This document shows, piece after piece, positions 940 through 21,633 of a stretch of 64,000 nucleotides of DNA. Positions within the stretch are counted from its first letter, which is position 1. The number at the start of each line of letters is the position of its first letter. Below the pieces are notes generated by a model. It searched no databases. It saw only the letters and a program-made list of their open reading frames with translations, and had not been told where the DNA came from. The stretch covers positions 186,001 through 250,000 of the forward strand of contig NZ_CP024845.1 in the NCBI RefSeq assembly GCF_002788215.1. Reading direction: 5' to 3'. The translations under genes were made by a program, and so were the position numbers. Source of the DNA: Halohasta litchfieldiae (lineage in GTDB: Archaea > Halobacteriota > Halobacteria > Halobacteriales > Haloferacaceae).

Positions 940-1184
940 GCGTCGTCATCTTTATCTGCGGTCTCGGAGTCGCCAGTCGTCGGGGTTGTATTCAAGCAGA
1001 CCTAGCCTATCAGGTATACCTTTCCCCGCAACGTAGCGGAGGTCTACTCTATAGACATAGCCCAGTGCACTAACGGCCTTAGGGGCTGCGTCTACCCCTT
1101 ATTGTGAGTTTTAATTTGGTCTTGGAATCGGGAAGTGGTGGCTTCTTCAATTCTCACTTCGTCTGTTTCTTTCGAACAGCGAAC

Positions 1185-1730
1185 CTATGCGCGTCCCCGA
1201 ATGAGGTCAACTAATAGTTGGGCTCGTTCGGTATCTTTGATTCTGCGAACGGTCTCACTGGGCGAATACTTCTCTTTGTAATCCAGAATACCATTTCCAT
1301 GCTGTCTTGACACAGCATCTTCCAAGTCAAGAACCGCTTCCCATCGGACTGGGAGGTGCCACTCAGGGACCCTTGGGTCAATTTTTTCATCTTCGTTTTG
1401 GATTTCTTGACCATTGAATGGGCCGACTACACGACCGGTTGCGCAGTACCCTTTTCGGTTGACGTATGCGATGAGTTGGTCACCAATCGACGGCTCCTCT
1501 AACTGACTTCCCCATTGGTCATAATCCCCATACGCTGCAGCAACACCTTGGTAAAGTGCTTCTGTTCCGTCCTCTCCTTCCGGGAAATGCTGCTTATTTG
1601 TGTTCCAAATATAACACTGAGATTTATCTAATTTGTGTCTCAGCGCCTTATTACAGACTTGAGATATGTTTATTCCCTCTTCTTTTGCTTGCTCGTGTAT
1701 ATTGTCGTCAAGGTTGATTGTTGTTCTCAT
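1185..1730 (-). CDS. RHH (CcdA/VapB-like) N-terminus fused to EVE/PUA-like domain
   Basis: Residues 1-35 (MRTTINLDDNIHEQAKEEG...) read as a ribbon-helix-helix strand and helix of the antitoxin type. Residues about 40-165 resemble the EVE/PUA-like fold: a YIWNTNKQHF start, a central PSIGDQLIAYVNRKG strand pair followed by ATGRVVG, and later VRWEAVLDL. EVE domains bind modified bases in DNA or RNA and are common in defence islands. The pairing suggests a DNA-binding regulator that also senses modified bases; that role is inference. It lies next to an SRA/EVE/HNH nuclease on the same strand, separated only by a DUF6884 remnant, so the genes may share a transcript. Confidence 0.55.
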   Translation of the reverse strand: MRTTINLDDNIHEQAKEEGINISQVCNKALRHKLDKSQCYIWNTNKQHFPEGEDGTEALYQGVAAAYGDYDQWGSQLEEPSIGDQLIAYVNRKGYCATGRVVGPFNGQEIQNEDEKIDPRVPEWHLPVRWEAVLDLEDAVSRQHGNGILDYKEKYSPSETVRRIKDTERAQLLVDLIRGRA

Positions 1731-1898
1731 CTACTATATTCGATGGTCTACAATAAATTAAAACTTATGCATAGCAGAAGCATTAGTGCATAATTATGGC
1801 CCAAGTGTGTTCACCTATTGATTTCCCTATTATCAGAATAACAATCTTAAATTGGTGAAATTAATCAAAACTTATCGTAGGGGTAGATAGAATTTGTA

Positions 1899-2066
1899 TC
1901 ACGATTGTGTAAGGCGTTTGGCTGAGTGTATACTCCACTCATCGTGATTCTGTTCAGCATAGGCACCCATCTTTTCAAAATACGGAGAGGTGTAGAGATA
2001 CCTCGGAGAAGCTGACTCATCTCGCTTGGTCTTCACGCAACTGACGAGGCCAATTTCAGTCATCAT
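1899..2066 (-). pseudogene. Truncated DUF6884-family remnant
   Basis: The frame starts at ATG ATG (2066/2063), overlapping the TGA of the upstream HNH gene (stop 2056-2058), an arrangement typical of translational coupling. The residues MTEIGLVSCVKTKRDE, then LYTSPYFEKMGAYAEQNHDEW and SAK, match the N-terminal pattern I know from DUF6884 proteins (IGLVSC.KsK.d...ar.LY.SplF...r.yae). The reading then ends at about 55 residues, whereas the family is normally well over 100. I call it a 3'-truncated remnant of the second gene of the HNH operon. Confidence 0.6.
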
Positions 2067-3459
2067 GGAATCCGTTGAGTTGGCGATGTTCTGCAAGGAA
2101 CATTGGATGAGGTTTCACAGCATCTTCGTTAGGAAGTCGCATCTTATTCTCTCCCAGTTCTTTAAATTCATCATAGCCGTTTCGTTCTGGTTCCTCTTTC
2201 ACTAATATCTTGTACTCATCCGAGATTGAAAGCCATCCTGTGTCGAAGGCCCAATGATGAAGTTTGCAAAGTGATATTCCGTTTCTAACATCATCGCTTC
2301 CGCCTTCCTTTTTTGGGTAGATATGAGCGGCCTCTGTCTCGGGATTTCCTTTAGGGGTTTCTCTCTGACTTCCACAGAAGACGCACTGGGAATCGTAGGC
2401 CTCTCTCACCAATCGTGCGAAGGCAGAATCTCTCGCCCTCCGCCGACTCACCGTATATAATTCCTCGTCCTCTGTGAGTTGTGGCGGGGAATCAACTACC
2501 TTCTCCAAAGCCGACTTCTCTTCCTCTATCTCGTCCTCAGTCGGTTCTCGTTCGACATTGAAGATAGCAGCTTGGAGTGAACCATGCTCCTGCCTCAAGC
2601 GGGCTAACCTCTCATTGGCGACTCGGGTGAATCCTTGGACGACTTCCCTCCCCTCGTAGCCTAACCAGTCCCACACTTGTTCGACGGAAGGAACGTCAGT
2701 GGTGACTTCATCGAGGATGTAGATATGGCGACTCTCTGGCTGACTCCAAATGAGAGCGCCTACGTCGGAGTTGTCGAAGGTGCGTTGCACGCGAGCACCC
2801 AATATGAAATCTCCGCCGTGGTAGAAGAGAATGTAGTCACCAGCCTCCATCTTCTCGATAGCGGCCTGCTTCTTTGCGGAGTCTGTCTCAGTCGTCCCCC
2901 AAATCCGTAGTTCTTCATAGCCTACCAACTGTGGAGGTACTTCCTCATATCCGCTTAGGTTGTGAGGATTTTCGACGGAATTTCTAAATCGCATTCGCCA
3001 CTCTTGGCTGACAGGAATCAGGTAGAGGCCATTTGAAGAAAAGTCCTCTCTATACTCCATTATATAAGCTAAAATGTTTCTCTCATCCTGCTCTCTAAAC
3101 TCGTAGTCAATCACATCGACGAGGCCTTGATATTCCCATCCGTCATCTCTCGCTCTCTTATAAAAGAAGTAAATAGGAATGTCGGTACTGATGGCGTCGA
3201 TGAGGGTGGAGTTGCCAGGAGACTTCTTATTTTGGTCACCACTCAACCCTTCCCCGATGTACTCGAATCGCCCTTGCGTTACCGAATCGCTGTACGGCCC
3301 ATTTTCGTTTGCAAAGAGGAGGATATAGCGCCTATCCTGTTCGTCGCGTCTTGGATTGATTCCGGAGATTCGATAGCCGAAACCAGTGTTGAACGCAGAT
3401 TCAATTTCCTCCTGAGTGTAATTGTGGCTGATTTCTATGCCTTCAGGTGGTTCCTTCAT
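2056..3459 (-). CDS. HNH endonuclease with SRA-like and EVE-like N-terminal domains (type IV restriction-like)
   Basis: 467 aa. Residues about 60-125 carry an SRA/YDG-like signature (FEYIGEG.sGDQ...GN, then WEYQGLVDVIDYEF). Residues about 180-290 look EVE/PUA-like (ELRIWGTTET, MEAGDYILFYHGG, LGARVQRTF, VQGFTRV). Residues about 357-412 form an HNH module: CVFCGSQ zinc pair, AAHIYPKKEGGSDDVRNGISLCKLHHWAFD. This order is that of nucleases that read modified bases and cut, such as McrA/ScoMcrA-type enzymes, so the expected role is restriction of modified phage DNA. The stop overlaps the DUF6884 remnant downstream. All recognisable catalytic and zinc residues are present. Confidence 0.75.
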   Translation of the reverse strand: MKEPPEGIEISHNYTQEEIESAFNTGFGYRISGINPRRDEQDRRYILLFANENGPYSDSVTQGRFEYIGEGLSGDQNKKSPGNSTLIDAISTDIPIYFFYKRARDDGWEYQGLVDVIDYEFREQDERNILAYIMEYREDFSSNGLYLIPVSQEWRMRFRNSVENPHNLSGYEEVPPQLVGYEELRIWGTTETDSAKKQAAIEKMEAGDYILFYHGGDFILGARVQRTFDNSDVGALIWSQPESRHIYILDEVTTDVPSVEQVWDWLGYEGREVVQGFTRVANERLARLRQEHGSLQAAIFNVEREPTEDEIEEEKSALEKVVDSPPQLTEDEELYTVSRRRARDSAFARLVREAYDSQCVFCGSQRETPKGNPETEAAHIYPKKEGGSDDVRNGISLCKLHHWAFDTGWLSISDEYKILVKEEPERNGYDEFKELGENKMRLPNEDAVKPHPMFLAEHRQLNGFHDD

Positions 3460-7575: not shown

Positions 7576-8269
7576 TCATTTTGAAACTGATAAATCATAC
7601 AACTTGCGTCGTTCATTGTCTTCCAGAATCCGCTTAATAGTGGTTCTTGAAGTGTTCAACATGTGTGCTCCTTTCGATTGACTCAACTCACCACTATCAA
7701 TCAAATCGAGAACCCCACAGATACGGTCAAAATCATCGGTCGGATACAGGTCTCCACTATTTTTTGAGAATCCTAACGGAGACCGTCACCATTTGTACCC
7801 ATTGGCCCTCATCTGCCTGATAGACTCCTTGGTTCGTTGCTGAGTTATTTTGGCTTCGAGCTCAGCAAATACTCCGAGCATCTGCAACATAGCTCTTTGA
7901 TAAGGGTAGTTGGTTCGTGGGTCGTACTTAATAGATTCTCTGATGAAGTACAATGCAGTTTCATTCTCTTCGTATACATGGACGAAATCGCTAAAGTCTC
8001 GAATCGAACGAGCGACACGAGATACAGAGGTCGTGATTACTGAGTGTATATTTTCTTTTTTAATATCATCTCGTAATCTGTTATACTCTTCCCCGTCCAA
8101 CGGTGCTTGTCCCCGTATATATGTCAGCATACTCTCGTTGGTCATGCTCAGGAAATTCGCTTTCTATGAATTCGATTACTTCTGAACGGTGATTCTCTGG
8201 CTGTTGGTCTTCAGTTGATACGCGGACATAGGTGGCGACAATTCTCTCTTTGTTCTTTATTTGTTCTAT
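7576..8269 (-). pseudogene. Serine recombinase/resolvase pseudogene (frameshift plus in-frame stop)
   Basis: Three pieces of one resolvase are readable. The N-terminus (IVATYVRVSTEDQQPENH..., with catalytic Ser) lies in one frame to about 8081. The continuation (EEYNRLRDDI..SVITTSVSRVARS..ELEAKITQQRTKESIRQM) is in another frame from about 8110. After KW there is an in-frame TGA, then SPLGFSKNSGDLYP and a C-terminal HTH (LSQSKGAHMLNTSRTTIKRIL) to the stop at 7576. No ATG is visible at the expected start near 8269 (ATA is there instead). Clearly inactive, a leftover of an earlier mobile element. Confidence 0.8.
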
Positions 8270-8627
8270 ACCTAAAGTACAGGGTGAATTATATTTAAAA
8301 GACGCGCTTTTCGTACAGTGAGAAAGACACCCGTATGAAAACAGTCCATAGAGTACCGGTAGTGTTAGTTTATTTGCCAATACCAGATTTCTGTAAGTAC
8401 CTAATTTACAAACTAACTTATTTCCACTAGATTTGTTTAACTATACACTCGTATCTACTACAAATCTAAAATAAAATCATTATACTTAAGTAGTTAACCA
8501 GTATATGTCTATATGTGATATCAAAAATAATGAAATCATCCTTCAAACTGCTCAAGCTAAAAAATGAAATCGAAGAAGAGGACTGGTGAAACCAGGATAG
8601 CCCATTAGAACAAAACCTACCTCTACC
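8270..8627. other. AT-rich gap without recognisable gene
   Basis: About 360 bp between the resolvase remnant and the repeat array. It is very AT-rich and holds only very short ORFs (under 25 codons). No RNA gene or terminator could be made out. Confidence 0.5.
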
Positions 8628-8852
8628 ACCGCAGTCCCCCACTGCATTCGGCCCCCACCGCAGTCCCCCACTGCATTCGGCCCCCACCGCAGTCCCCCAC
8701 TGCATTCGGCCCCCACCGCAGTCCCCCACTGCATTCGGCCCCCACCGCATTCGGCCTCCACCGCAGTTGCCCCCGCTGCATTCGGCCTCCACCGCAGTTG
8801 CCCCCGCTGCATTCGGCCTCCACCGCAGTTGCCCCCGCTGCATTCGGCCCTC
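8628..8852. repeat. GC-rich tandem array: 4 x 29-bp and 3 x 31-bp related units
   Basis: Four perfect 29-bp units (starting at 8628, 8657, 8686 and 8715; core GCAGTCCCCCACTGC plus ATTCGGCCCCC) are followed by a 16-bp partial unit (8744-8759) and three 31-bp units (8760, 8791, 8822; core GCAGTTGCCCCCGCTGC). Each unit holds an inverted repeat: GCAGT-CCCCC-ACTGC in the first type, GCAG-N9-CTGC in the second. The complementary strand has a G-run (GGGGG) about every 14 bp, giving quadruplex potential. Unit length is not a multiple of three and the apparent proteins change frame each unit, so it is not coding. GC content stands out against the AT-rich surroundings. Confidence 0.95.
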
Positions 8853-9075
8853 ACCTCAGTCAGCTCCAATAAATTACACTCGTGCAAAAATTGGAGCAGA
8901 ATGAAACTGTATTCAACCCTGCAGATGGCAATTACAGAGTCTGATTCCGCACTATGCCAATATAGGGCGACTTAAAACTAATATTCTAATAATAACGGTT
9001 GAAACAATCTCAATAAATTGTTTTTATTGTATTTACACCGAAACCTTTATATTAATACTTTCTTTATGATATTAT

Positions 9076-9243
9076 ATGCTAAGAAAATATACGAGTCGAG
9101 AAATGGTAGAGGTTTCAGAAAAAATTGTAGAACAGTTCGGCAGCTTGTTGCACGTTAGTGTAGCTTCTTCAAAATCAGAAGCGTATGTTGCAGATGGTTG
9201 TCCTCGCTCTGCAGAAGCATATTCTAATGGAGGTGAGCAATAA
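9076..9243 (+). CDS. Small hypothetical protein, 55 aa, first gene of a three-gene operon
   Basis: ATG 9076 (MLRKYTSREMVEVSEKIVEQFG...) to TAA 9241-9243. The stop overlaps the ATG of the next gene by one base (TAATG), and that gene in turn overlaps the third, so this short frame is very likely real. A TATA-like AT stretch lies just upstream. The sequence has an amphipathic helix (EMVEVSEKIVEQFGSLL). No family recognised. Confidence 0.55.
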   Translation: MLRKYTSREMVEVSEKIVEQFGSLLHVSVASSKSEAYVADGCPRSAEAYSNGGEQ

Positions 9244-9641
9244 TGAGTACTTTTGAAGACACACAAAATGACTGCGAGATTACGGTAATCATGAACAAGT
9301 ACGATTTTAAAAACGATAATGAGTATCTTTTCTTATCACCTGATGAAGCAACGTTCGATATAATAACTGAGCTCCTGTACAATGCTGGGAGCGACTTTAT
9401 TGCTATTGACCAAGGTACATTCTCGCAAAACAAATGTCACATCTTATATCATGTGCCCGTTGGTGCTGATGTAGGTAGGTTTGAGACGCATACTGAGAAG
9501 GCTGAAATGTTTGAGAGTGTGATAACCTATAATCAGAAATACTCTCTCCAACTGACTGAAATTGAAAATAGAGATACAAATAACCGACTCGTATTGTACG
9601 ATGAAGAAGAGCAGAATGAAATAAGGAGGAAGAATGACTGA
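9243..9641 (+). CDS. Hypothetical protein, 132 aa, second gene of the operon
   Basis: Starts at the TAATG overlap. Acidic and mixed alpha/beta (CEITVIMNKYDF, EYLFLSPDEATFDIITELLYNAGSDFIAIDQG, KCHILYHVPVG). The VPVGADVGRFETH segment may form a loop-strand unit. No known domain recognised. It is followed by an 8-bp overlap with the zinc-finger-like gene at 9634. The tight arrangement argues for products made together, possibly as one complex. Confidence 0.55.
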   Translation: MSTFEDTQNDCEITVIMNKYDFKNDNEYLFLSPDEATFDIITELLYNAGSDFIAIDQGTFSQNKCHILYHVPVGADVGRFETHTEKAEMFESVITYNQKYSLQLTEIENRDTNNRLVLYDEEEQNEIRRKND

Positions 9642-9966
9642 AGCCAACTCTGGAACAGGTTCTACGAACCAGATTAGAGTCTCTCCAATCTGCCAAGCAA
9701 AAGGGTGCGAAACAACAGCAACACACGCAATCTCAAGCCAAAATGGACACCCCAATGGTGAATGGAAACTCTGTTGGGGTCACTTTGACGAGGTCGATGG
9801 AAGAGACCCATGGTATGACGAAGACCGACAATGGACTCTACGAAAACTCTACTATCGGTGTCCAGACGGGGGACGAATCTCACATAATCTCATTCTAAAA
9901 TATAAAAGTAAAGGTGGGTATCCTTGTTCCTGTGGTGAGAGGCATCCTCCGCAGATAATACAATAA
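9634..9966 (+). CDS. Small cysteine-rich (zinc-binding) hypothetical protein, 110 aa
   Basis: Overlaps the previous gene by 8 bp. Metal-ligand pattern: C..K.C (residues about 20-25), an H, C..GH (WKLCWGHFDE), then YYRCPDGGR and PCSCGERH near the end. This suggests two small zinc-binding sites. The middle is rich in Trp and acidic residues. No family name can be given. It is the last gene of the three-gene operon; about 170 bp of AT-rich DNA separates it from the GmrSD fragment. Confidence 0.55.
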   Translation: MTEANSGTGSTNQIRVSPICQAKGCETTATHAISSQNGHPNGEWKLCWGHFDEVDGRDPWYDEDRQWTLRKLYYRCPDGGRISHNLILKYKSKGGYPCSCGERHPPQIIQ

Positions 9967-10133
9967 ATTCGAGCTTACTCCCTGCTTTCCAGTGTATAAT
10001 CCAATCTATCTATTGACTGGTCTTAACCAACAAAATACATGGAACGTTGGTTAATAGAATGCGAGTTGAACTTCGTTAGTCGTAATTCATAGTATACAGG
10101 GTTTATATATTGTTGCTACTTGGATAGTATATA

Positions 10134-10685
10134 ATGCCGACATCAGGTTTCAATCTTTCAGCCGACGATTACGACATCAATGAGATACTACAAGGGTCTC
10201 ATCAGATTCGTGTTCCAGATTATCAGAGGGAGTATTCATGGTCGAAAGACCAGTGGGCAGAGTTATGGGATGATGTGTATGCTCTTACCCGTGAGAGAGA
10301 TAATCACTTCTTAGGTTCGATAGTTGTAATCAATAACAAGAGTGAAGACATCAAAACGTTGGAGCTTGTGGATGGCCAACAAAGACTGACGACTATCTCA
10401 ATTTTACTCTGCGTTATTAGAGACCGATTTGAGGCTGAAGATGACGATGATTATTCTAATTTACCTGAATTGGTTAACAGCAACTTCTTACAAATAAAGA
10501 ATCCAACCACAGGAGAGACCCATAATAAATTGAAATTGAATAAGTTCCATAATGATGATTTCAAACGTGTTTTAGATGGGAACTTTGACCTTATTGACGA
10601 TTCGGAAATCAAGGATGCTTATGAATATTATGCGAATAGAATAGTCAAAACCTTATATTCGGAGAAAAACTTAGTATCGATGTAA
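10134..10685 (+). pseudogene. GmrSD-type (DUF262) restriction protein, N-terminal fragment
   Basis: 183 aa with the DUF262 signature: an IRVPDYQREYSWSKDQW motif (residues about 25-40), HFLGSIVV, and the nucleotide-site motif LVDGQQRLTTISIL (about 80-93). The frame stops at 10685, before the rest of the DUF262 domain. The missing remainder, including the DUF1524 HNH half, continues at 12613 after an intervening lipoprotein gene. GmrSD proteins are type IV enzymes that cut glucosylated or otherwise modified phage DNA and use both halves, so the fragment is probably inactive unless the halves associate. Confidence 0.75.
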
Positions 10686-10812
10686 CTTCAGATATAGGGT
10701 AATATAAGACTCTTTATTGTACAAATTAAAACACATTTTGTATATAAATATTATTTACTTATAGTTAAAACGATATCATAACACTTATTAATAAATAAAA
10801 TAAAGTACAAGT

Positions 10813-12525
10813 ATGAACCGAAGAGAACTACTTACGTCCCTTGGTGTTGGTACGGTGACCGCTCTTGCTGGATGTATGGGCGGTAATTCAGATGCAGAAC
10901 CTATGGGGGGCGAAGAGTCCACTAGTTATGATGACCTCTCCGAAGAAAAGCAGGAAGAACTGCTTAATGAAGAATTAGATGAAGTGTATAATCAGCGTGT
11001 GGAAGATGGTTCCTTGATTAAAGGACATAATCTTGATGTTGCGAGCGTAGACACAATTACGGATAACAGTGTAACTATCGAAACGACAATTAGCCTAAAC
11101 CCAATCGAGGACTATAATATCACGGTTCACTATAATCCTGTAACGGCTAATGATAATGGGGAATGGGTCTTCAAGAATTCTACAGACCCAGTTTATGGAC
11201 AAGATGCAGAATATGATTCTGAAACAGATACATGGATTCCATCAAATCAGGATGCAACGAAGACACTTCAGTATGATTTCAAAAACACAGAAGTCGGAGA
11301 ACATGTTTCTTCACTGACGGTTCCAAGCGAAGCATATTGGAATGAAGATGTTACGGTGGGAGAAGAACGTATCAATAACCGAGCATTTTACCGACAAGAT
11401 ATCTATAGTCATGGATGGAGTCGTGTAAACGAATTCTCACTCGAAAGTCCACCAGAAATGTATGAAACATTCGTTTATACACTTACATGGGAAGATGAGA
11501 ATACGGACAGCCCTCGTGGTGGAGAAGTAATCGCTAATACAGCACCGATGCTTCGCGTTGGTGAAGATGATTATATTTACCTACGAACACACAATGGAAA
11601 TTTCATTATCAACCCTAATTGGGATAGTAAGGGTTTCATCCGAAACGACAATCGAGATTACAAAATGAGCGATATCTATCGAGATAATATTGATAAATCG
11701 GGGGACTCGTTTGATGCTCACATCACCCGATTATCGAACTATGGGCGTTTCAGTCCGCGAATTCGCAATGAATTTGCAGATGCTAATTCTGTAAAGGTAG
11801 CAAGTGCTCAGGGTCCAGAATACTTTGATGCTCACCTTCAGTACCCATGGACTGTATCATACGAAATTGACCGTTCTACATTTGAAGAAGCTCAGAAAAC
11901 GGCTGCTTCGTATAAAGTTGGAGGAAAACAGACCAACGATGTAAAGGCTCTTGTGAATGCTCCAGAAGTAATGAACCATGATGTCGTTCAGGAAGTTGCA
12001 TCTAAACTCGGTGATGTTTGTGAGATGATGAATGCTACGCATCCATCTGAACAACTTCGTGTTGTTGCTGACTTTGTTCAGTATTTCTCACACACTTCGG
12101 AAGATGCTCTCCCATTTGGTCGTCCAAGTAACCTACTACCCGGAACAGCACATCCTGTAGCAACTCTAGCACGAGGGCTTGGGGACTGTAAGGATTATAC
12201 GGTTCTTGGTAATGCGATTCTACAGCAGGAGCCGTTCAACATGAATCCTGATGTAATCTGTATCCCAGAGGTTTACCAATATATCGCAGAGGAAGGTGAT
12301 GTGAATGCTGTGGGTCACGTTACGACAGCAGTTCCATCATCTGAACTTGGACTCGATGAACTGTCAATTGATAATGTTGGTGAACCACTCGGTGGAACGT
12401 TGGGTACTTTAGATATTGACGGTGTTGAGTATTCATACATTGAAATGTCTGGCCCATTCGATGTTGGTTTCGTTAGTAGTCAATGGATGGACTTCAGTGA
12501 GTTGGTTCATATCGATAATGTGTAA
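10813..12525 (+). CDS. Tat/lipobox-type lipoprotein with transglutaminase-like cysteine peptidase domain
   Basis: 570 aa. The N-terminus MNRRELLTSLGVGTVTALAGC has a twin-arginine-like start and an AGC lipobox, so it is exported and lipid-anchored, with an acidic linker after it. The middle is beta-rich with no known domain. The C-terminal part (residues about 410-540) resembles the transglutaminase-like core: LARGLGDCKDYTVLGNAIL with Cys459, then GHVTTAV with His502. Transglutaminase-like proteins act as peptidases or cross-linkers at the cell surface. The gene lies between the two halves of a GmrSD gene with its own AT-rich promoter region, so it arrived as an insertion. Confidence 0.65.
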   Translation: MNRRELLTSLGVGTVTALAGCMGGNSDAEPMGGEESTSYDDLSEEKQEELLNEELDEVYNQRVEDGSLIKGHNLDVASVDTITDNSVTIETTISLNPIEDYNITVHYNPVTANDNGEWVFKNSTDPVYGQDAEYDSETDTWIPSNQDATKTLQYDFKNTEVGEHVSSLTVPSEAYWNEDVTVGEERINNRAFYRQDIYSHGWSRVNEFSLESPPEMYETFVYTLTWEDENTDSPRGGEVIANTAPMLRVGEDDYIYLRTHNGNFIINPNWDSKGFIRNDNRDYKMSDIYRDNIDKSGDSFDAHITRLSNYGRFSPRIRNEFADANSVKVASAQGPEYFDAHLQYPWTVSYEIDRSTFEEAQKTAASYKVGGKQTNDVKALVNAPEVMNHDVVQEVASKLGDVCEMMNATHPSEQLRVVADFVQYFSHTSEDALPFGRPSNLLPGTAHPVATLARGLGDCKDYTVLGNAILQQEPFNMNPDVICIPEVYQYIAEEGDVNAVGHVTTAVPSSELGLDELSIDNVGEPLGGTLGTLDIDGVEYSYIEMSGPFDVGFVSSQWMDFSELVHIDNV

Positions 12526-12612
12526 AAATTAGTTCAATTTTTACATTTAAACTATCAATTTGTTATTTTGGACTATCACAACAATTTAATAGTTTAAAAT
12601 GTATTATCTATT

Positions 12613-13875
12613 ATGGATGATGATTTAAAAAAATATATAATTGATATTATTGAACCTCACAAGATTGAGAAAGTACGTGAAATTTATAATGAGCTAGTCA
12701 ATTCAATTTACCTAGTTCAGATTGAGTGTGGTAGTGAAGTTTCTGCATTCCGGCTTTTCGAGAGCTTGAACGATAAAGGGCTTGACCTCAGTGCTGTTGA
12801 CTTGGTGAAGAATCGAGTGTTTATGGAAGCCAATCAAAATGATTCTATTGATGAAGAGAGAGTGAAGGCCCTCTGGGAAGATATAATGACTATCATTCGT
12901 CCTGAAATTAACCAGATGTATCGGTTCTTCACTCACTACTATATGTCCATACCTTCTCCCGAAATCAAAGATAACGTTTCCAAAAACAAACTCTATGACT
13001 ATGTTGATGAGCTTCTATCTGGTGAATTAGCGAACAATGGTATTTCTCTTGAAGAGATGCTAGAGGATATGCGTACAAAAGCTGAAGTGTATGTTGATAT
13101 CAAAAACTGTGAAGTCAGTGAGAATTTCCAGAAGAGTAGGATTCAGGAACTCAACTCAAAACTACGTTCAACGCAGATTAAGAATGACCGGATTCGAACT
13201 CTCTTACTGAAGATTGTCATTGAGTATGAGAGTGCTGATGAGGTTCTTGAAGCTCTCAACATCTTAGAGATATTGAATACACGAGATAAGATTGCAGGAC
13301 GAGATTCGAACACTAGTCGTGATAGATTCTGGTCTAAAATATGTTCTAAGATGAATCAACATGATAATCCGAATATGTACTTACGACGGATTGCAGAACA
13401 ACGGTCACCAAATAATACGATAATGAAGGAGCGGATTATTAATCGAGATTTCAAAAACAACGACTTTACGAAATACATTCTTGATAGAATTGAAGAAGAA
13501 CACTATATGCGTTCTAGTGGGAATGAAAAATCGGTTGCTAATAGAGATACGGTAGATATTGAGCATATTGCTCCACAACGGATTGGTGCTGACAAATATG
13601 ATGAATGGGAAAAATACCTTAACTGTACTAAAGAGGAATTCCAAGAGTACAAAAAGAGGATTGGGAATCTTACTCTGCTAAACGATAGTCTAAATCAAAC
13701 TGCGTCAGATAATCCATTTGAACAAAAACGTCAAATTTACAAACATAAAACAGACTTCCTCATGACTCAAGCTGTTGCTGAAGAATACGATGAGTGGAGA
13801 ATTGAACAAATTAAACACCGTAGTGAAAAGATGGCAGATATAATCTGTGAGGTTTGGAATATGGATAACGTTTGA
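12613..13875 (+). pseudogene. GmrSD-type restriction protein, C-terminal fragment (DUF262 end plus DUF1524 HNH)
   Basis: 420 aa. It begins late in the DUF262 domain: SAFRLFESLNDKGLDLSAVDLVKN is the usual motif of its second half. Near the end are DIEHIAPQRIG and RIGNLTLLNDSLNQ..NPFEQKR, the His-containing HNH (DUF1524/GmrD) signature. The frame opens only at 12598 after a stop, so no upstream extension into the lipoprotein gene exists. Added to the N-terminal fragment this gives about 600 aa, the usual GmrSD length. It may still be translated, but without the N-terminal motifs. Confidence 0.75.
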
Positions 13876-13891
13876 ACAAACAGATTATTGA

Positions 13892-14080
13892 TTAATAGAA
13901 CGGTGGTCGAACTTCTTCCTTAGTGACCTCCAGCACGACACTGAATTCGTCAAGCGCAACTTCATAGACTCTATCTTGGCGTGAGAGTACCATCCCATGC
14001 TCTCCGTGAAATCTGAAATCTGAATCTCTCACATCAGGTATGTCTATACGTACGCGGTCGGCCAAGCGGTACTGTTGCAT
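13892..14080 (-). CDS. Small KOW/SH3-like hypothetical protein, 62 aa
   Basis: MQQYRLADRVRIDIPDVRD...HGEHGMVLSRQDRVYEVALDEFSVVLEVTKEEVRPPFY. It has alternating strands with a conserved-looking G-x-V-L turn, as in small KOW/SH3 barrels used for nucleic-acid or protein contacts. Same strand as, and 66 bp downstream of, the restriction endonuclease-like gene, so probably in one operon with it. Confidence 0.5.
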   Translation of the reverse strand: MQQYRLADRVRIDIPDVRDSDFRFHGEHGMVLSRQDRVYEVALDEFSVVLEVTKEEVRPPFY

Positions 14081-14146: not shown

Positions 14147-14938
14147 CTAGAAACTATTTAGAGTTGAATCCGTAGATTTAGCTTCGAATTCATACTTCCA
14201 AACACGCTCTGTGCTCAGCTTGTCTTCGCCGTCTTCTTGGTATACGTCGAATTCGAATAGGTAGAAGTAACCGTTCTCGTCCACTTTGACAGCGATTGTC
14301 TCGACAGAGTTTGGATAGTCTGATTTATTCTCAATTCCACGCGTGTTGCGAATCAGTTGATTCCGATTCAGTGTTTCACCCTCTCCTTTGGCTTCAACAG
14401 TGATTGCATGATGTTCCTCATACTCATCAACACCTACGTATAGGTCATCCAGTTCAGCTTCACGTCCATTGACTCTCATTCGAAGGTGACTCTGGAGATG
14501 GTACGCCTCCAGCCCAGTGAAGTCTTCGAGCAAACCTGCATATCGAACTTGGGTTAGTGCTCCCTGTTCGTCCTGTCCGATGTAGTCTCGAACAGGTTTT
14601 GGAAGAGCTGCTGTAGTTGTGGTATAGATTTCATCAACATCATCATCACTTGGAACAGGAATTAGTTGGTCCTGCTTGGTGAACATATACGTCGGGTCTG
14701 AGCCTTCGCGCGTGTCATCGATGATTACTGCTGTATACCCATATTCTGCGATTTCATCAGGGAGTGGACGACGGCTCCGATATGCGTACGGAATGTCTGG
14801 AACGTTGCCTACACTAATGTCAAGCTCGTCCATTGCGTCTTCAATATCGCTACGACGGAACGGTAGTTCTTCTTCAGTTCCATACTCCTCAGCCTTCTTC
14901 TCAAATACCCGTTTAATCACAGGTTCATACTTTGCCAT
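14147..14938 (-). CDS. Type II restriction endonuclease-like protein, PD-(D/E)XK
   Basis: 263 aa. The C-terminal half holds a nuclease-like core: AELDDLYVGVDEYEEHHAITVEAKGEGETLNRNQLIRNTRGI, i.e. D-D...VEAK followed by a QL helix, as in many type II enzymes. The N-terminal half has FRRSDIEDAMDELDISVGNVPDIPYAYRSRR, typical of halobacterial restriction enzymes of this sort. It sits behind a winged-helix gene and opposite a DNA methyltransferase gene, which supports the restriction role. The recognition sequence cannot be read from sequence. Confidence 0.7.
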   Translation of the reverse strand: MAKYEPVIKRVFEKKAEEYGTEEELPFRRSDIEDAMDELDISVGNVPDIPYAYRSRRPLPDEIAEYGYTAVIIDDTREGSDPTYMFTKQDQLIPVPSDDDVDEIYTTTTAALPKPVRDYIGQDEQGALTQVRYAGLLEDFTGLEAYHLQSHLRMRVNGREAELDDLYVGVDEYEEHHAITVEAKGEGETLNRNQLIRNTRGIENKSDYPNSVETIAVKVDENGYFYLFEFDVYQEDGEDKLSTERVWKYEFEAKSTDSTLNSF

Positions 14939-15040
14939 GCAACCAGACAGTCACACAGATGAGAATTAAACATGTCTTTGATTTTATATATTCGAAGACT
15001 ACTAACAGATATCTTTGAAGAAACTCGATATACTAAAAAA

Positions 15041-15382
15041 TCAGAATTTAGCTACACCAGCATCTTCGAAGCTGAAGTGGTAATCGTCTGGAACCAATTC
15101 AAACCGGAGTGTTTTGCCGTCTTCAGGGATATAGAATTCTTTCCTTGGCCTGTTACCGGGGCCGCGCACATTTTTAGATTTTAACAGTCCCACATTCTCA
15201 AGCTGATTGAGATTGTTCACGATGCTTTCTGGCGTAATATCGAAATCACCAGTCTTAGCTAACTTAGGAGCCGAAATTGCATTACTCTCTGTTGCTTTCA
15301 TCAAGAGTCTAAGCCGTACTTCTGAACTCAGAACCTTATGCAGCTTTTCTTGATGAGCTAGATTTTGTTCTTCTTCAGACAC
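15041..15382 (-). CDS. Winged-helix (ArsR-like) regulator of the restriction-modification locus
   Basis: 113 aa. KLHKVLSSEVRLRLLMKATES, then APKLAKTGDFDITPESIVNNLNQLENVGLLKS and a basic wing (RGPGNRPRKEFYIPEDGKTLRFELV) form an ArsR-type wHTH. It is placed 102 bp upstream of the endonuclease on the same strand and divergent from the methyltransferase, with 141 bp between the divergent starts, the usual position of a control protein timing R and M expression. Its role here is inferred from position. Confidence 0.7.
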   Translation of the reverse strand: MSEEEQNLAHQEKLHKVLSSEVRLRLLMKATESNAISAPKLAKTGDFDITPESIVNNLNQLENVGLLKSKNVRGPGNRPRKEFYIPEDGKTLRFELVPDDYHFSFEDAGVAKF

Positions 15383-15523
15383 AGTAGCGACTCATAATAG
15401 AAGTATAAAATAGCTTCCTTAAAACGAAGATACTATGAATCTATACGTTATTTGTCTTTGTAGAATCTCGATGGAAGAATCGAATTATATCAAAGATAGT
15501 AACCGTAAATCCTACTCGGAACT

Positions 15524-16918
15524 ATGAATACAGTCAGAGACAACGAGGTAGATAAGTTGAAGCACCAGAGCAATATCGGGCGGCTTGATGATGTTAGTAT
15601 CCACAGTTGGTACAGATTCGTCTATGCGTATTCTGATAGAGTAATTACTGGGTTGGCTGATGAATTTGGAATCACACAAGATGACCTGATTTTAGACCCA
15701 TTTAATGGAACAGGCACAACTACGCTAGCGGCCAAGAAATTAGGTATCGATGCTATTGGAACAGATACTAGTCCTGCAAGCGTTCTCTCTGCTCGAACTA
15801 AGACTAATTGGGATGTAGACCTTGACGAGTTCAGGAAAAGACGTAAGGAGCTTCTTGATACTCTTGAACCGATATTTAGTCAAATTGGTTCAGGAGAGAA
15901 CAAAACATTAGGTGACTTTTCCAGCAGTGAAGAAGAGAATGAAATTTCTCTTGAAAAATATGATTTCACAGAGCCGAAGAAAACGCCGAAAGGTTGGCTC
16001 AGTGAAAAGCCGCTGAAGAAGATGAAGGTCATGAAATACCACATCGAGGAGATGCCCGATAATGATGTGACTGACCTCTTCAAATTGGCTATGATTGCTA
16101 TTCTTCCAGAGGATGTCGGTAACGTTCGGTTTGGACCAGAAGCTACGCGTGACCGGAAACAAGAGGGTGATAAAGATGTCCTCCTGTATTTCGAACAGAA
16201 GCTCCGGCAAATGGAGGATGACTTAGAGAAAGTCCAACAGACCACCAATAAGGATGATGTCGTTGTTGGTGATGTTGAAATTATTCGTGGAGATGCGAGG
16301 CAAATTGGAGACCAGCTTCGAGAAGAATCTACTCTACTGAATAGTGAGAAACACGAAGGTGAGATTGACTATTTAATCACATCTCCACCGTATCCAGCAG
16401 AACATGATTACACTCGGAATCAGCGTCTTGAACTAATCTGGTTGAACGCTGCTGACGATAACAAAGACCTTCAGAAAATCAAGAAGGCGAATATCCGTTC
16501 ACACACTAAGAATATCTACGTAGCTGATAATGAAGGTGAGCAAGTCAATATTCGAGAAAATGAGCACGTAGATGAAATCGCGTCTAAGATGGAGCAGTAT
16601 ATTATCGATGAGGATATTTCACATGGATTTGGAAATTACTATCCTCGTGTCGTCGAAGAGTATTTTGCAGGAATGCAACATCACTTCGAGCAGGTTTACG
16701 ACATCATGTCACCGGGTGGAAAGGCGGCCTATGTTGTAGGTGACTCTGGTTCATATTGGCAGTTCGAGATTCCGACTGCGAAAATTCTCAAAGAACTTGC
16801 TGAAGAACGAGTCGGATTTGTTAATGCTGAAATCAAGCTCTGGAGAAACATGGCCGCAACCACAGCAGACTACGACGATGTTAAGGAAAATATTCTTGTT
16901 CTGAGTAAACCAGAATAG
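15524..16918 (+). CDS. DNA methyltransferase (N4-cytosine/N6-adenine type)
   Basis: 464 aa. The AdoMet motif I (LDPFNGTGTTTLAAKKLGIDAIGTD) is at residues about 56-82, and the catalytic motif IV (TSPPYPAEHDYTRNQ) at about 285. The long stretch between probably holds the target-recognition part, an alpha-type motif order. SPPY is most often N4-cytosine but also occurs in N6-adenine enzymes. The partner nuclease and winged-helix genes lie just left. It would protect host DNA from the linked endonuclease. Codon use is AT-rich like the island. Confidence 0.85.
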   Translation: MNTVRDNEVDKLKHQSNIGRLDDVSIHSWYRFVYAYSDRVITGLADEFGITQDDLILDPFNGTGTTTLAAKKLGIDAIGTDTSPASVLSARTKTNWDVDLDEFRKRRKELLDTLEPIFSQIGSGENKTLGDFSSSEEENEISLEKYDFTEPKKTPKGWLSEKPLKKMKVMKYHIEEMPDNDVTDLFKLAMIAILPEDVGNVRFGPEATRDRKQEGDKDVLLYFEQKLRQMEDDLEKVQQTTNKDDVVVGDVEIIRGDARQIGDQLREESTLLNSEKHEGEIDYLITSPPYPAEHDYTRNQRLELIWLNAADDNKDLQKIKKANIRSHTKNIYVADNEGEQVNIRENEHVDEIASKMEQYIIDEDISHGFGNYYPRVVEEYFAGMQHHFEQVYDIMSPGGKAAYVVGDSGSYWQFEIPTAKILKELAEERVGFVNAEIKLWRNMAATTADYDDVKENILVLSKPE

Positions 16919-18774: not shown

Positions 18775-19557
18775 ATGATGAGCAGCTATCTGTCAGGTCC
18801 TATCCCCCGGATAGAAGCAAAAGATGAGCATCTCAACCTCGTCTCAAAGGCGCAGACAGTTGAGGCTGTGATGCTTGATTATCCTCACGCCCGTCGTTTG
18901 GACCAGAATGGTATTGACCTCGAAAACATTGATGCCAAACTCATTCTTGCATCTACGATTCCGGACGAAACACTGGAGGAATGGTTCCCCGACCGTGAAC
19001 TAGCATTTGCCAAACGAGTCGGTGCTGATGCTATTGTCCCCTGCGACCGACCAGTGTACAATCGTGACGCGCGTGCTCAGCGGATTGAAACCATCCAGAC
19101 GTATGTAGCGGACCTCCGGGATATCGTCCCTCACTTCCGGGATGCTGGTATCGAAGTAGTTCCTTTAGTGAAAGGTGAGACCGAGTACGAACGTCGATTG
19201 TGTTATGATGCGTTCGATGAGCTCGGCTGTACAAGAGTAGCCTACTACTGTGTCCAGTATTTCAGCTACGGGTTTCGGTATAATGAACTGCTTGAGCGTG
19301 TCCAACAAATTTCATTCGAATACGAACCAGAGAACATGATATTAATTGGCCTTCAATCGGAGAACCTAGTATCGGACTTCCCACCATGTGTGACCGGAGC
19401 AGCTGGTCAACGGTGGCTACGTAACTGCAACCCTCGTGATGTGTCGGTTGTCGAGGCCGCACATCAATACGACGAATGGAGCCGACAGGTTACCGCTGCT
19501 CTGAGTACGGGGCAGTCACAGCTTCATACGTTTACGAGTTCGAAGGGGTGGGCCTGA
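18775..19557 (+). CDS. TGT/DpdA-like TIM-barrel protein coupled to CD-NTase
   Basis: 260 aa. An alternating strand-helix pattern of a TIM barrel: VEAVMLDYPHARRL, AKLILASTIPDE, FAKRVGADAIVPCDRPVYN, IEVVPLVKGETEYERRLCYDAFDELGCTRVAYYCVQYFS, ENMILIGLQSENL, then PPCVTGAAGQRWL. This order resembles tRNA-guanine transglycosylases and the DNA-modifying DpdA group (late strand with a V.P...G motif, a C..a...lG helix, a final S-W element). The classical zinc site is not evident. The TGA overlaps the next ATG (TGATG), so it is translationally coupled to the CD-NTase. Family assignment is moderate; a base-exchange or base-binding role is inference. Confidence 0.5.
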   Translation: MMSSYLSGPIPRIEAKDEHLNLVSKAQTVEAVMLDYPHARRLDQNGIDLENIDAKLILASTIPDETLEEWFPDRELAFAKRVGADAIVPCDRPVYNRDARAQRIETIQTYVADLRDIVPHFRDAGIEVVPLVKGETEYERRLCYDAFDELGCTRVAYYCVQYFSYGFRYNELLERVQQISFEYEPENMILIGLQSENLVSDFPPCVTGAAGQRWLRNCNPRDVSVVEAAHQYDEWSRQVTAALSTGQSQLHTFTSSKGWA

Positions 19558-20495
19558 TGGGGTCTGGTATTGCACCGCCGAGTCACCCTGGAAATCAAGA
19601 TGAGCATGGGCCAGGCCACGATGAATCCGGTCAGACTTCGTTAGATGATTATGCCGATGAGACTGGTCCTACGAATCGGCAGGGTAAGACAATCAACGAA
19701 CGTCGTGAGCGGCTGGAACAGATTCTAGAAGAGGAGATGGTGATTGTTGAAAGTCATCAGTTCGGGTCCTTTACGCGCGGAACAATGGTTGGACCTCTTT
19801 CGGAAGATTCCGATACAGATGTGATGTTCGTGCTGAGCCGTGAGAAGCACGGCCAATGGGAACGTGGAGAAAATGGGTCAAGTAACTGTCTTCGGGCAGT
19901 AAAGCGAGTACTTGAAAAGCGGTATCCTAATTCGAATGTTAGCATCGACCGAAACGTCGTAAGCGTCCAATTCAGTGATTTCACAGTGGACGTTGCACCA
20001 GCGTTTAAAGATGACACAGGTGGATACAAAATCCCAGACACGTATAGTGACGGACAGTCTTGGGTACGGACAAATCCACGAGGATACAAGCAACGGTTCG
20101 AAGCCATCGATAACGCTCGTGGAGGCAAGCTTCAGAAGGTCGCCCGCGTTGCAAAGAAACTCCGTGAGAATCGGAATATACCGGTCAGTTCGTATCACAT
20201 GGAGGTGATGGCGTATGATTACGTCCATAATCATCCCAATAAGGATGCCACGACAGAGGAGTTGACCGAGGGATTCGTCGAGGAACTACCTCGTCGAGTT
20301 TCGCGGGGTACTCGGGACCCTGTCAATGGGGACCGATTGGACTCGAATATGGACCAGGCGAATCGGAAAGAAGCTATCAGGAAGGCAAAGGCTGCCCGGA
20401 AGAAGATGCGTGAGGCGAGAACACGTCGTCGAGACGGAGACAGCAGAGAGGCAAATGAAAAATATGGTGATGCTCTTGGGGAGGATATCGATTGA
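19557..20495 (+). CDS. CD-NTase (CBASS cyclic-oligonucleotide synthase)
   Basis: 312 aa from ATG 19557, which overlaps the upstream TGA. After a disordered N-terminus (residues 1-40) come the nucleotidyltransferase hallmarks: FGSFTRGT (Gly70-Ser71), EDSDTDVM (Asp86, Asp88) and FTVDVAPAF (Asp145), the full catalytic triad. The C-terminal helical part with HMEVMAYDYV and a basic tail fits the CD-NTase/OAS-like fold. Such enzymes make cyclic di- or trinucleotides or oligoadenylates after phage infection and activate a toxic effector, here the SLATT protein downstream (ATG overlaps this TGA). No Cap2/Cap3 genes are present, so it would be a minimal type I-like CBASS with an extra upstream gene. 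Confidence 0.8.
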   Translation: MGSGIAPPSHPGNQDEHGPGHDESGQTSLDDYADETGPTNRQGKTINERRERLEQILEEEMVIVESHQFGSFTRGTMVGPLSEDSDTDVMFVLSREKHGQWERGENGSSNCLRAVKRVLEKRYPNSNVSIDRNVVSVQFSDFTVDVAPAFKDDTGGYKIPDTYSDGQSWVRTNPRGYKQRFEAIDNARGGKLQKVARVAKKLRENRNIPVSSYHMEVMAYDYVHNHPNKDATTEELTEGFVEELPRRVSRGTRDPVNGDRLDSNMDQANRKEAIRKAKAARKKMREARTRRRDGDSREANEKYGDALGEDID

Positions 20496-20564: not shown

Positions 20565-21633
20565 GAGGGTGTCATAGAAAGCGTCACACACGAAGACGCA
20601 GGATGTTGGAACTGTGTCTACGAGCGCCAGCATCCTGCAAGAGGAGACTTCTATCGACGAGTTCTTCAATGTAATGGCGACCGAGACGCTCGCGTTGTTC
20701 GAGCATCTTGAGTTCGACTTTCTCGAAGAATTCGATGTGTTCGCCCCCGCTCGCCGGGGGCGAACACGAGATCATCACCCACCAGCACTCTTCCGAGCGT
20801 TCCTGCACTGCTACTACAAGAACGTCTACGGCATCCGTCCAGTCACGCGAGAACTCCAGAACACGGTCGTCTGGCTCAGCTGTGGCTTCGATCGACCGCC
20901 GTCGAGAGACGCGGTCGATCGCTTCCTCACCGACCTCGAACACGTCGTCGACGAGGTCTTCGACCGCCTCGTCGAGCAGGCCGCCTGCCGCGGCCTGCTC
21001 GACTTGACCTACTCCATCGATTCCACCGACGTGAGGACGATGCCCGCCGACCAAGACGCGTCGAAAGGCTACGATCCAACCGCCGAAGAGTACTACCACG
21101 GCTACGGCTGTACGATCGTCTCGACCGGGCAAAAGATCCCGATTGCCGCGGAGTTCACCGAGAGCAAGCAAGCGCCAGAGGAGACGGCGATGCGCGTCAC
21201 GTGTGACGCGCTCGCCGTCGAGAAACCGATCTGGATGCTTGGAGACAGCGCCTACGACACGCTCGGCTGGCACGACCACCTGCTGGCCGCAGGGGTCGTG
21301 CCAGTCGCTCCGTACAACGCACGAAACACCGACGATCCGAAAGACATCGAGTACAGGGTCGAAGCCCGCATCGACGAACACAGCGAGGACGTTCAGCTGA
21401 AGCAATCGACGCTAGACGAGACGTACAACCGCCGGAGTGGAGTCGAACGAACCAACGACGCCGTCAAGGACTGCGGCCTCGGGCACGTTCGCGCCCGAGG
21501 CCGCGTCCACGCACGAGCACAAGTGTTCCTCGCGCTGTGCCTTCGTCTCGTTATTGCGATCACCAACGACGAACGCGGAGACAATCCAGGAAGCACCGTC
21601 ATCACGCTATGAGAACTATTCTATGACACCCTC
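20565..21633 (+). mobile_element. Insertion sequence, 1,069 bp, perfect 15-bp terminal inverted repeats
   Basis: Ends are GAGGGTGTCATAGAA (20565-20579) and its exact reverse complement (21619-21633), flanked by 9-bp direct repeats ATACGTACA. It carries a single transposase gene. Its GC-rich composition matches the core chromosome rather than the island, so it probably came from a resident haloarchaeal IS. Size and repeat length recall the ISH11-type elements of the IS5 superfamily, but I cannot confirm the name. Confidence 0.95.
20614..21612 (+). CDS. DDE transposase (IS5/IS4 superfamily)
   Basis: 332 aa, intact. The DDE triad is visible as YSIDSTDV, GDSAYDTLGW and SGVERTNDAVK. The N-terminal part (LFRAFLHCYYKNVYGIRPVTRELQNT..LSCGFDRPPSRDAVDRFLTDL) is the usual helical DNA-binding region. 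It occupies almost all of the IS. The terminal repeat and duplication are intact, so the element may still be active. Confidence 0.85.
   Translation: MSTSASILQEETSIDEFFNVMATETLALFEHLEFDFLEEFDVFAPARRGRTRDHHPPALFRAFLHCYYKNVYGIRPVTRELQNTVVWLSCGFDRPPSRDAVDRFLTDLEHVVDEVFDRLVEQAACRGLLDLTYSIDSTDVRTMPADQDASKGYDPTAEEYYHGYGCTIVSTGQKIPIAAEFTESKQAPEETAMRVTCDALAVEKPIWMLGDSAYDTLGWHDHLLAAGVVPVAPYNARNTDDPKDIEYRVEARIDEHSEDVQLKQSTLDETYNRRSGVERTNDAVKDCGLGHVRARGRVHARAQVFLALCLRLVIAITNDERGDNPGSTVITL

What the first reader, a model, noticed from the sequence alone, without database searches (positions are those of the whole stretch)
10134..13875. GmrSD restriction gene split by a lipoprotein gene with a transglutaminase-like domain
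The N-terminal DUF262 motifs (10134-10685) and the rest plus the DUF1524 HNH (12613-13875) lie in the same orientation with total length of about 600 aa, separated by about 1.9 kb holding one gene with its own AT-rich flanks. No transposase, inverted ends or target duplication can be made out, so the way it arrived is unclear. The cargo is a secreted lipid-anchored Cys/His enzyme-like protein, which could be a surface defence or adhesion factor.
Basis: partly seen in the sequence, partly recalled or inferred. Interest (0 to 1): 0.58.

Follow-up and report, generated by a model that had tools for sequence, protein, structure and literature searches.

The report
Restriction gene interrupted by lipoprotein gene
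In a salt-loving archaeon, a gene for a DNA-cutting defence enzyme has been broken in the middle by a two-kilobase piece of DNA carrying a gene for a surface-anchored, protease-like protein; it looks like an ordinary accident of gene shuffling in a defence island, although both halves of the broken gene are still in good shape.

Summary
A haloarchaeal gmrSD-type gene (DUF262 + DUF1524/HNH) is split into a 183-aa N part (10134-10685) and a 420-aa C part (12613-13875), with a lipoprotein gene (10813-12525) in the same orientation between them. Close intact homologues (72-75% identical) place the break in a variable stretch of DUF262, at Ile 10641-10643 / Ile 12649-12651. About 2.0 kb came in, including the start codon now available to the C part. 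None of 25 other genomes with close homologues has a split gene (one has an internal TAG); none of 7 other genomes with the lipoprotein has it inside gmrSD. I found no terminal inverted repeats, no convincing target duplication, no transposase, no second copy of the ends. Simplest reading: illegitimate insertion of a free-standing gene, which broke gmrSD. The cargo is a Tat/lipobox lipoprotein with an Ig-like part and a C-terminal transglutaminase-like Cys-His domain (weak to moderate evidence). 47 of 48 family-invariant residues survive, so the break is young or the halves still work together. Unexplained: the closest lipoprotein relative lies beside a homologue of the rare gene 9634-9966, which also adjoins this locus. 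Ordinary in kind; low to moderate interest.

The parts
10134..10685 (+). N part of the gmrSD-type gene (183-aa ORF; homologous up to Ile 10641-10643; the last 13 codons and the stop belong to the insert)
   Evidence: PF03235 1-152, E 8.9e-30; 75.4% identical to G226 over shared codons
10644..12648 (.). Inserted DNA, about 2.0 kb; left edge uncertain 10641-10667, right edge uncertain 12649-12672
   Evidence: Comparison with uninterrupted homologues L088, L089, L090, L024
10813..12525 (+). Lipoprotein gene, 570 aa: Arg-Arg and lipobox Cys21, Ig-like middle part, C-terminal transglutaminase-like Cys459/His502 domain
12546..12598 (.). Palindrome (19-nt arms, 15-nt loop) behind the lipoprotein gene; terminator or element end, not decided
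   Evidence: z -1.17; 6 of 300 controls as good
12613..13875 (+). C part of the gmrSD-type gene (420-aa ORF; ATG and first 12 codons come from the insert; homology from Ile 12649)
   Evidence: PF03235 142-199 and PF07510; PADLOC Orf5 PDLC02692 E 9.6e-87
9634..9966 (+). Rare Cys-rich (zinc-finger-like by my reading) 110-aa gene left of gmrSD whose homologue in G137 lies 0.76 kb from the lipoprotein gene there

Best explanation
A formerly intact, single-chain gmrSD-type (DUF262-DUF1524) gene in a haloarchaeal defence island was broken by insertion of about 2.0 kb of DNA carrying one complete gene with AT-rich flanks. Shown: two halves of one gene, one insert, the ancestral register, no second DUF262 gene. 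Inferred: the insert arrived by illegitimate, non-transposon joining. The N part meets a stop about 40 bases into the insert and the C part has an ATG inside the insert, so a full-length chain can no longer be made and restriction is most likely lost. The inserted gene brings its own promoter region (inferred); its product is exported by the Tat route, lipid-anchored outside the membrane, and most likely cleaves or modifies surface proteins or peptides with a papain/transglutaminase-fold Cys-His domain (inferred from residues and fold).
For: Of 26 genomes (of 371) with a C-half match at E<=1e-60, the 25 others all have it in one frame of 570 aa or more, one with an internal TAG. G226, G277, G094 and G345 run through the junction with no 2-kb insert. 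Both halves are equally close to the same homologue. Only these two PF03235 matches in the genome. No inverted ends above chance, no second copy of either end in the genome, insert DNA matched elsewhere in 371 genomes only inside the lipoprotein coding part. RR/lipobox residues invariant in 6 of 6; PF04473 and PF01841 each in 2 of 6 members; papain/transglutaminase-like structures lead the fold list.
Against: 47 of 48 family-invariant residues are kept and the C half shows no excess of changes, which fits a dead gene only if the break is young. The closest lipoprotein relative (G137) sits next to a homologue of gene 9634-9966, as here, which a random insertion does not explain. The transglutaminase-like assignment rests on family members and on low-confidence models (pLDDT 51.9 and 54.5).
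Confidence: 0.7

Rival explanations
1. The insert is a mobile element (non-autonomous transposon or decayed insertion sequence) that carried the lipoprotein gene as cargo.
For: A shared GAGAAA at 10662-10667 and 12667-12672 could be a 6-bp target duplication in a register one codon longer than the homologues; a palindrome lies near the right end (6 of 300 controls as good).
Against: 13.9% of 5000 shuffles give a run as long; in the register of the homologues no direct repeat of 5 or more; best inverted match between the ends below the shuffle mean (10 against 11.9); ends single-copy in the genome; no transposase ORF in the insert.
Confidence: 0.18
2. The halves still work: two separately made polypeptides reassemble into an active split enzyme, the C half using a start codon supplied by the insert.
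For: 47 of 48 residues invariant in 15 homologues kept; C-half lineage-specific changes equal to those of intact homologues (29 v 30, 25 v 33); the break lies in a variable stretch (78th percentile of entropy); ATG in frame 12 codons before the homology.
Against: N-half changes somewhat raised (16 v 7, 15 v 11); no natural case of a split at this place among 25 other close homologues; known two-gene systems divide between the domains, not inside DUF262 (PMC4619093, passages seen).
Confidence: 0.12
3. Natural architecture: gmrSD halves encoded as separate genes around a lipoprotein gene form a system.
For: Same strand and intact frames; lipoprotein relatives also lie near defence-type genes in G137, G155 and G314.
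Against: 0 of 25 other genomes with close C-half matches show it; 0 of 7 other lipoprotein loci lie in gmrSD, although one (G314, L073) has a separate, intact 725-aa DUF262 gene about 5.9 kb away.
Confidence: 0.02
4. Two different gmrSD copies, one truncated at its 3' end and one at its 5' end, came to flank the lipoprotein gene by rearrangement; or the arrangement is an assembly error.
For: The lipoprotein and gene 9634-9966 are neighbours in G137, so an older pair may have been pulled apart by rearrangement.
Against: The two parts meet at the same ancestral residue and are equally close to the same homologue, which one insertion explains and two independent truncations do not. The genome is one contig.
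Confidence: 0.04

Closest known systems
GmrSD family (PF03235 GmrSD_N + PF07510 GmrSD_C; PADLOC Orf5 PDLC02692 and HEC-06), single-chain form
   Same: Both domains, motif residues and order; 72-75% identity to intact haloarchaeal homologues
   Different: The chain is broken inside the N-terminal domain by 2.0 kb; the substrate (glucosylated hydroxymethylcytosine DNA for the founding enzyme, PMC4619093 abstract) was never tested for this branch
Two-gene GmrS/GmrD systems
   Same: Two consecutive same-strand genes make up the parts of the enzyme
   Different: Those divide between DUF262 and DUF1524 (PMC4619093, abstract and passages); here the break is at about residue 170 inside DUF262, with a foreign gene between
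Transglutaminase-like superfamily, DUF553 (PF04473) / Transglut_core (PF01841); by fold also LapG-type proteases
   Same: GDC with the Cys before a helix, a later GH, then YxYIE; 2 of 6 family members hit each Pfam model; fold rows 3kd4 Z 7.1 rmsd 3.8 126 aligned, LapG 4fgo Z 7.0 rmsd 4.7 122, 3isr Z 6.5 rmsd 4.1 123, 4xz7 Z 6.2 rmsd 5.5 130, 2f4m Z 5.4 rmsd 3.6 130
   Different: The window protein itself hits neither Pfam model; it is a 570-aa lipoprotein with an added beta-sandwich part; no activity tested

Membership tests
GmrSD (single-chain) | DUF262 (GmrSD_N) domain | tested here: met
   Present but divided: 1-152 in the N part, 142-199 in the C part, the latter alone below cut-off
GmrSD (single-chain) | DUF1524 (GmrSD_C) domain with HNH motif | tested here: met
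   PF07510 E 3.5e-23; 47 of 48 family-invariant residues kept over both parts
GmrSD (single-chain) | one uninterrupted chain | tested here: not met
   Stop at 10683-10685 and 2.0-kb insert; so it is a broken copy of a family gene
GmrSD (single-chain) | NTP-dependent cutting of modified DNA | not testable with these tools
   Needs protein and DNA
Two-gene GmrS/GmrD | genes divided at the domain border | tested here: not met
   Break inside PF03235
Transglutaminase-like superfamily | profile match | tested here: inconclusive
   Window protein none; PF04473 in 2 of 6 (best 3.6e-7) and PF01841 in 2 of 6 (best 0.0058) members
Transglutaminase-like superfamily | catalytic Cys, then His, then an acidic residue | tested here: met
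   C459, H502 and E544 invariant in 6 of 6; that E544 is the third catalytic residue is a guess
Transglutaminase-like superfamily | fold | tested here: inconclusive
   Papain/transglutaminase-like structures lead the list but all Z < 8, model pLDDT 54.5
Tat-exported lipoprotein | twin Arg and lipobox Cys | tested here: met
   R3 R4 G20 C21 invariant in 6 of 6; export itself untested
Insertion sequence / MITE with cargo | terminal inverted repeats | tested here: not met
   Best ungapped match 10, shuffle mean 11.9
Insertion sequence / MITE with cargo | target duplication | tested here: inconclusive
   GAGAAA only in a shifted register; 13.9% of shuffles as long
Insertion sequence / MITE with cargo | more than one copy of the ends in the genome | tested here: not met
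   Only second matches of 24-35 bases, E about 0.035

The most novel reading that the evidence does not exclude
The insertion did not kill the system: the insert supplied a stop for the N half and a start for the C half, and gmrSD now works as a two-chain enzyme divided inside its DUF262 domain, while the surface Cys-protease-like lipoprotein belongs to a small haloarchaeal island module together with gene 9634-9966 and was moved into gmrSD from next door.
Probability: 0.08. Interest if true: 0.5.

Novelty: new member of a known kind. Interest (0 to 1): 0.22.

Why it matters
It is a clean case of a defence gene broken by a cargo gene without recognisable mobile-element machinery. It adds an example of how haloarchaeal defence islands reshuffle and gives a natural split point inside DUF262 that could be tested for reassembly. 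It does not point to a new kind of system.

Tried and rejected
Rejected: a natural split architecture (0 of 25 other close homologues split); a MITE or IS with inverted ends; an end hairpin on the left (z 0.42; 120 of 300 controls as good), with only a modest palindrome on the right (z -1.17; 6 of 300). The lipoprotein was not found on plasmids, phages or viral contigs, and a first genome-contig scan with the single protein found nothing; the scan with the alignment gave 4 loci, of which the bacterial one (L087, 73 residues matched) was not used. The PDB sequence search with the lipoprotein alignment gave one chance-level row (4u65, E 1.1). The full-length lipoprotein model (pLDDT 51.9) gave mostly beta-sandwich rows, and for its C-terminal part two transglutaminase rows (5mho Z 6.5 rmsd 6.0 161 aligned; 8rmy Z 6.4 rmsd 6.7 160 aligned); Foldseek alone was uninformative for both models. 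In one search human menin and other rows appear below the transglutaminase-like ones. Gene 9634-9966 was not found on plasmids. Literature: no paper in the open-licence library held GmrSD + interrupted + insertion + pseudogene or transglutaminase-like + haloarchaea + lipoprotein; this says only that those term sets are absent there.

Rows dropped before counts: of 21 of 147 relatives with a lipoprotein match at E<=1e-3, only the own genome and G137 match along the whole protein; the others are short or weak matches, most of them to the signal-peptide region, and are left out. The class counts use E<=1e-8 for the lipoprotein and E<=1e-60 for the C half; weaker gmrSD relatives exist (35 of 147 at E<=1e-3) and were not all inspected for splits.

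Full report
What is there. The window is part of a 3.33-Mb single-contig chromosome, haloarchaeal by inference from its relatives (e.g. Haloarcula and Natronomonas for the lipoprotein). Three ORFs on the + strand carry the finding: 10134-10685, 10813-12525 and 12613-13875. The first and third together make a GmrSD-type protein: PF03235 positions 1-152 in the first, 142-199 plus PF07510 in the third. No other PF03235 match exists in the genome.

The break point. Of 371 class genomes, 26 have a match to the C part at E<=1e-60, one being this genome; in all 25 others it lies in a frame of 570 aa or more, one with an internal TAG. The closest are G226 (L088) and G277 (L089), 72-75% identical over both halves, then G094 and G345 at about 60-66%. 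In G226 the protein runs through the place where the window has AYEYYANRI on the N side and IEPHKIEKVREIY on the C side with the same number of residues, so Ile 10641-10643 and Ile 12649-12651 stand for one ancestral residue. What lies between, about 2.0 kb, includes the stop of the N ORF and the ATG of the C ORF. A register one codon longer would put the edges at a shared GAGAAA (10662-10667, 12667-12672), but 13.9% of 5000 shuffles do as well. The edges stay uncertain by about 25 bases.

How it arrived. The ends show no inverted repeat above chance and have no second copy in the genome. The whole insert as DNA query found, in 371 class genomes, only short matches inside the lipoprotein coding part in 3 other genomes. 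A palindrome at 12546-12598 is modestly unusual (6 of 300 controls) and could be a terminator. No transposase or recombinase lies in the insert; a frameshifted serine-recombinase-like frame pair lies 1.75 kb upstream of gmrSD (8380-7786, minus). I favour non-transposon joining of a free-standing gene. Microhomology-mediated end joining is reported for Haloferax, where it made deletions (PMC7521656, one abstract passage seen); its use for an insertion here is inference.

The cargo. A 570-aa protein with Arg3-Arg4 and lipobox Gly20-Cys21, invariant in 6 of 6 aligned members. Relatives are rare: 8 of 391 class genomes at E<=1e-8, own included; the closest is G137 (45%), then G155 (36%). G457-D458-C459, H502, Y542 and E544 are invariant. 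PF04473 and PF01841 are each hit by 2 of 6 members. The model of the C-terminal domain (pLDDT 54.5) aligns first to a run of papain/transglutaminase-like structures (3kd4, LapG, 3isr, 4xz7, PNGase), all at Z under 8: support, not proof. Residues from about 70 to 350 align to beta-sandwiches of Ig type. A surface-anchored protease- or amidase-like protein is the likeliest function. No PADLOC model matches it.

Surroundings. Downstream lie a type II restriction enzyme (14147-14938, PDLC03404, 6.2e-32), a methyltransferase (15524-16918, PDLC03224, 3.3e-38) and a CD-NTase (19476-20495, PDLC00805, 5.8e-162): a defence island. Lipoprotein relatives lie near defence-type genes in G137 (type IIG enzyme), G155 (LmuB-like and PDC-S11-like proteins) and G314 (DrmD/BrxH-like helicase piece and a HEC-05 DUF262 gene); in the other four loci I did not test the neighbours. 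The gene just left of gmrSD (9634-9966) is rare (2 of 147 and 6 of 391 genomes, own included), and its G137 homologue lies 0.76 kb from the lipoprotein gene there; it is absent from the fetched stretches (16-20 kb) of the other 6 lipoprotein loci. A random insertion does not explain this link; it remains open.

Does it still work? 47 of 48 residues invariant in 15 intact homologues are kept (the exception, by my reading of the alignment, is an Asp to Asn in the C half). Lineage-specific changes in the C half equal those of the intact homologues (29 v 30, 25 v 33); in the N half they are somewhat higher (16 v 7, 15 v 11). Synonymous sites are saturated, so there is no usable dN/dS. Either the break is young or the halves are still used. 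Natural two-gene GmrS/GmrD systems exist (PMC4619093, abstract and 12 passages seen) but divide between the domains; this break is inside DUF262, in a variable stretch (78th percentile of entropy). I put loss of function first.

Verdict. In kind this is an interrupted defence gene; only the detail is new. Interest 0.22.

Noticed in passing
window 9634-9966 (+); L053:12793-13545 (-): Rare Cys-rich small gene, found in 6 of 391 class genomes (own included), next to the lipoprotein gene in G137 and one gene part away from it here; other carriers (L076-L079) lack the lipoprotein in the fetched stretch.
   Followed up: partly
window 13892-14080 (-); also L077, L078, L097, L099: Small VRIDIPD-type protein (faint L21e-like match, E 0.0022, below cut-off) that recurs near restriction-type, gmrSD or recombinase genes in haloarchaeal islands.
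   Followed up: partly
window 7786-8380 (-): Serine-recombinase-like gene in two overlapping frames, apparently frameshifted.
   Followed up: no
window 8626-8860: GC-rich tandem repeat array, units of 13-31 nt, beside the recombinase remnant.
   Followed up: no
window 14147-16918: Type II restriction enzyme (-) and methyltransferase (+) flanking an ORF 15041-15382.
   Followed up: no
window 19476-20495 (+): CD-NTase of CBASS type (PDLC00805, E 5.8e-162); the next ORF 20614-21612 has no PADLOC match.
   Followed up: no
L073 (G314) 1180-3357 (-) and 9214-11094 (+): A distant relative of the lipoprotein lies about 5.9 kb from an intact 725-aa DUF262 protein (HEC-05, E 6.9e-47).
   Followed up: partly
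window 9243-9641 (+) and L053:13594-14661 (-): The 132-aa gene left of 9634-9966 is faintly similar (24% over 82 aa, E 8e-5) to the gene next to its homologue in G137, so the shared neighbourhood may be longer than one gene.
   Followed up: partly
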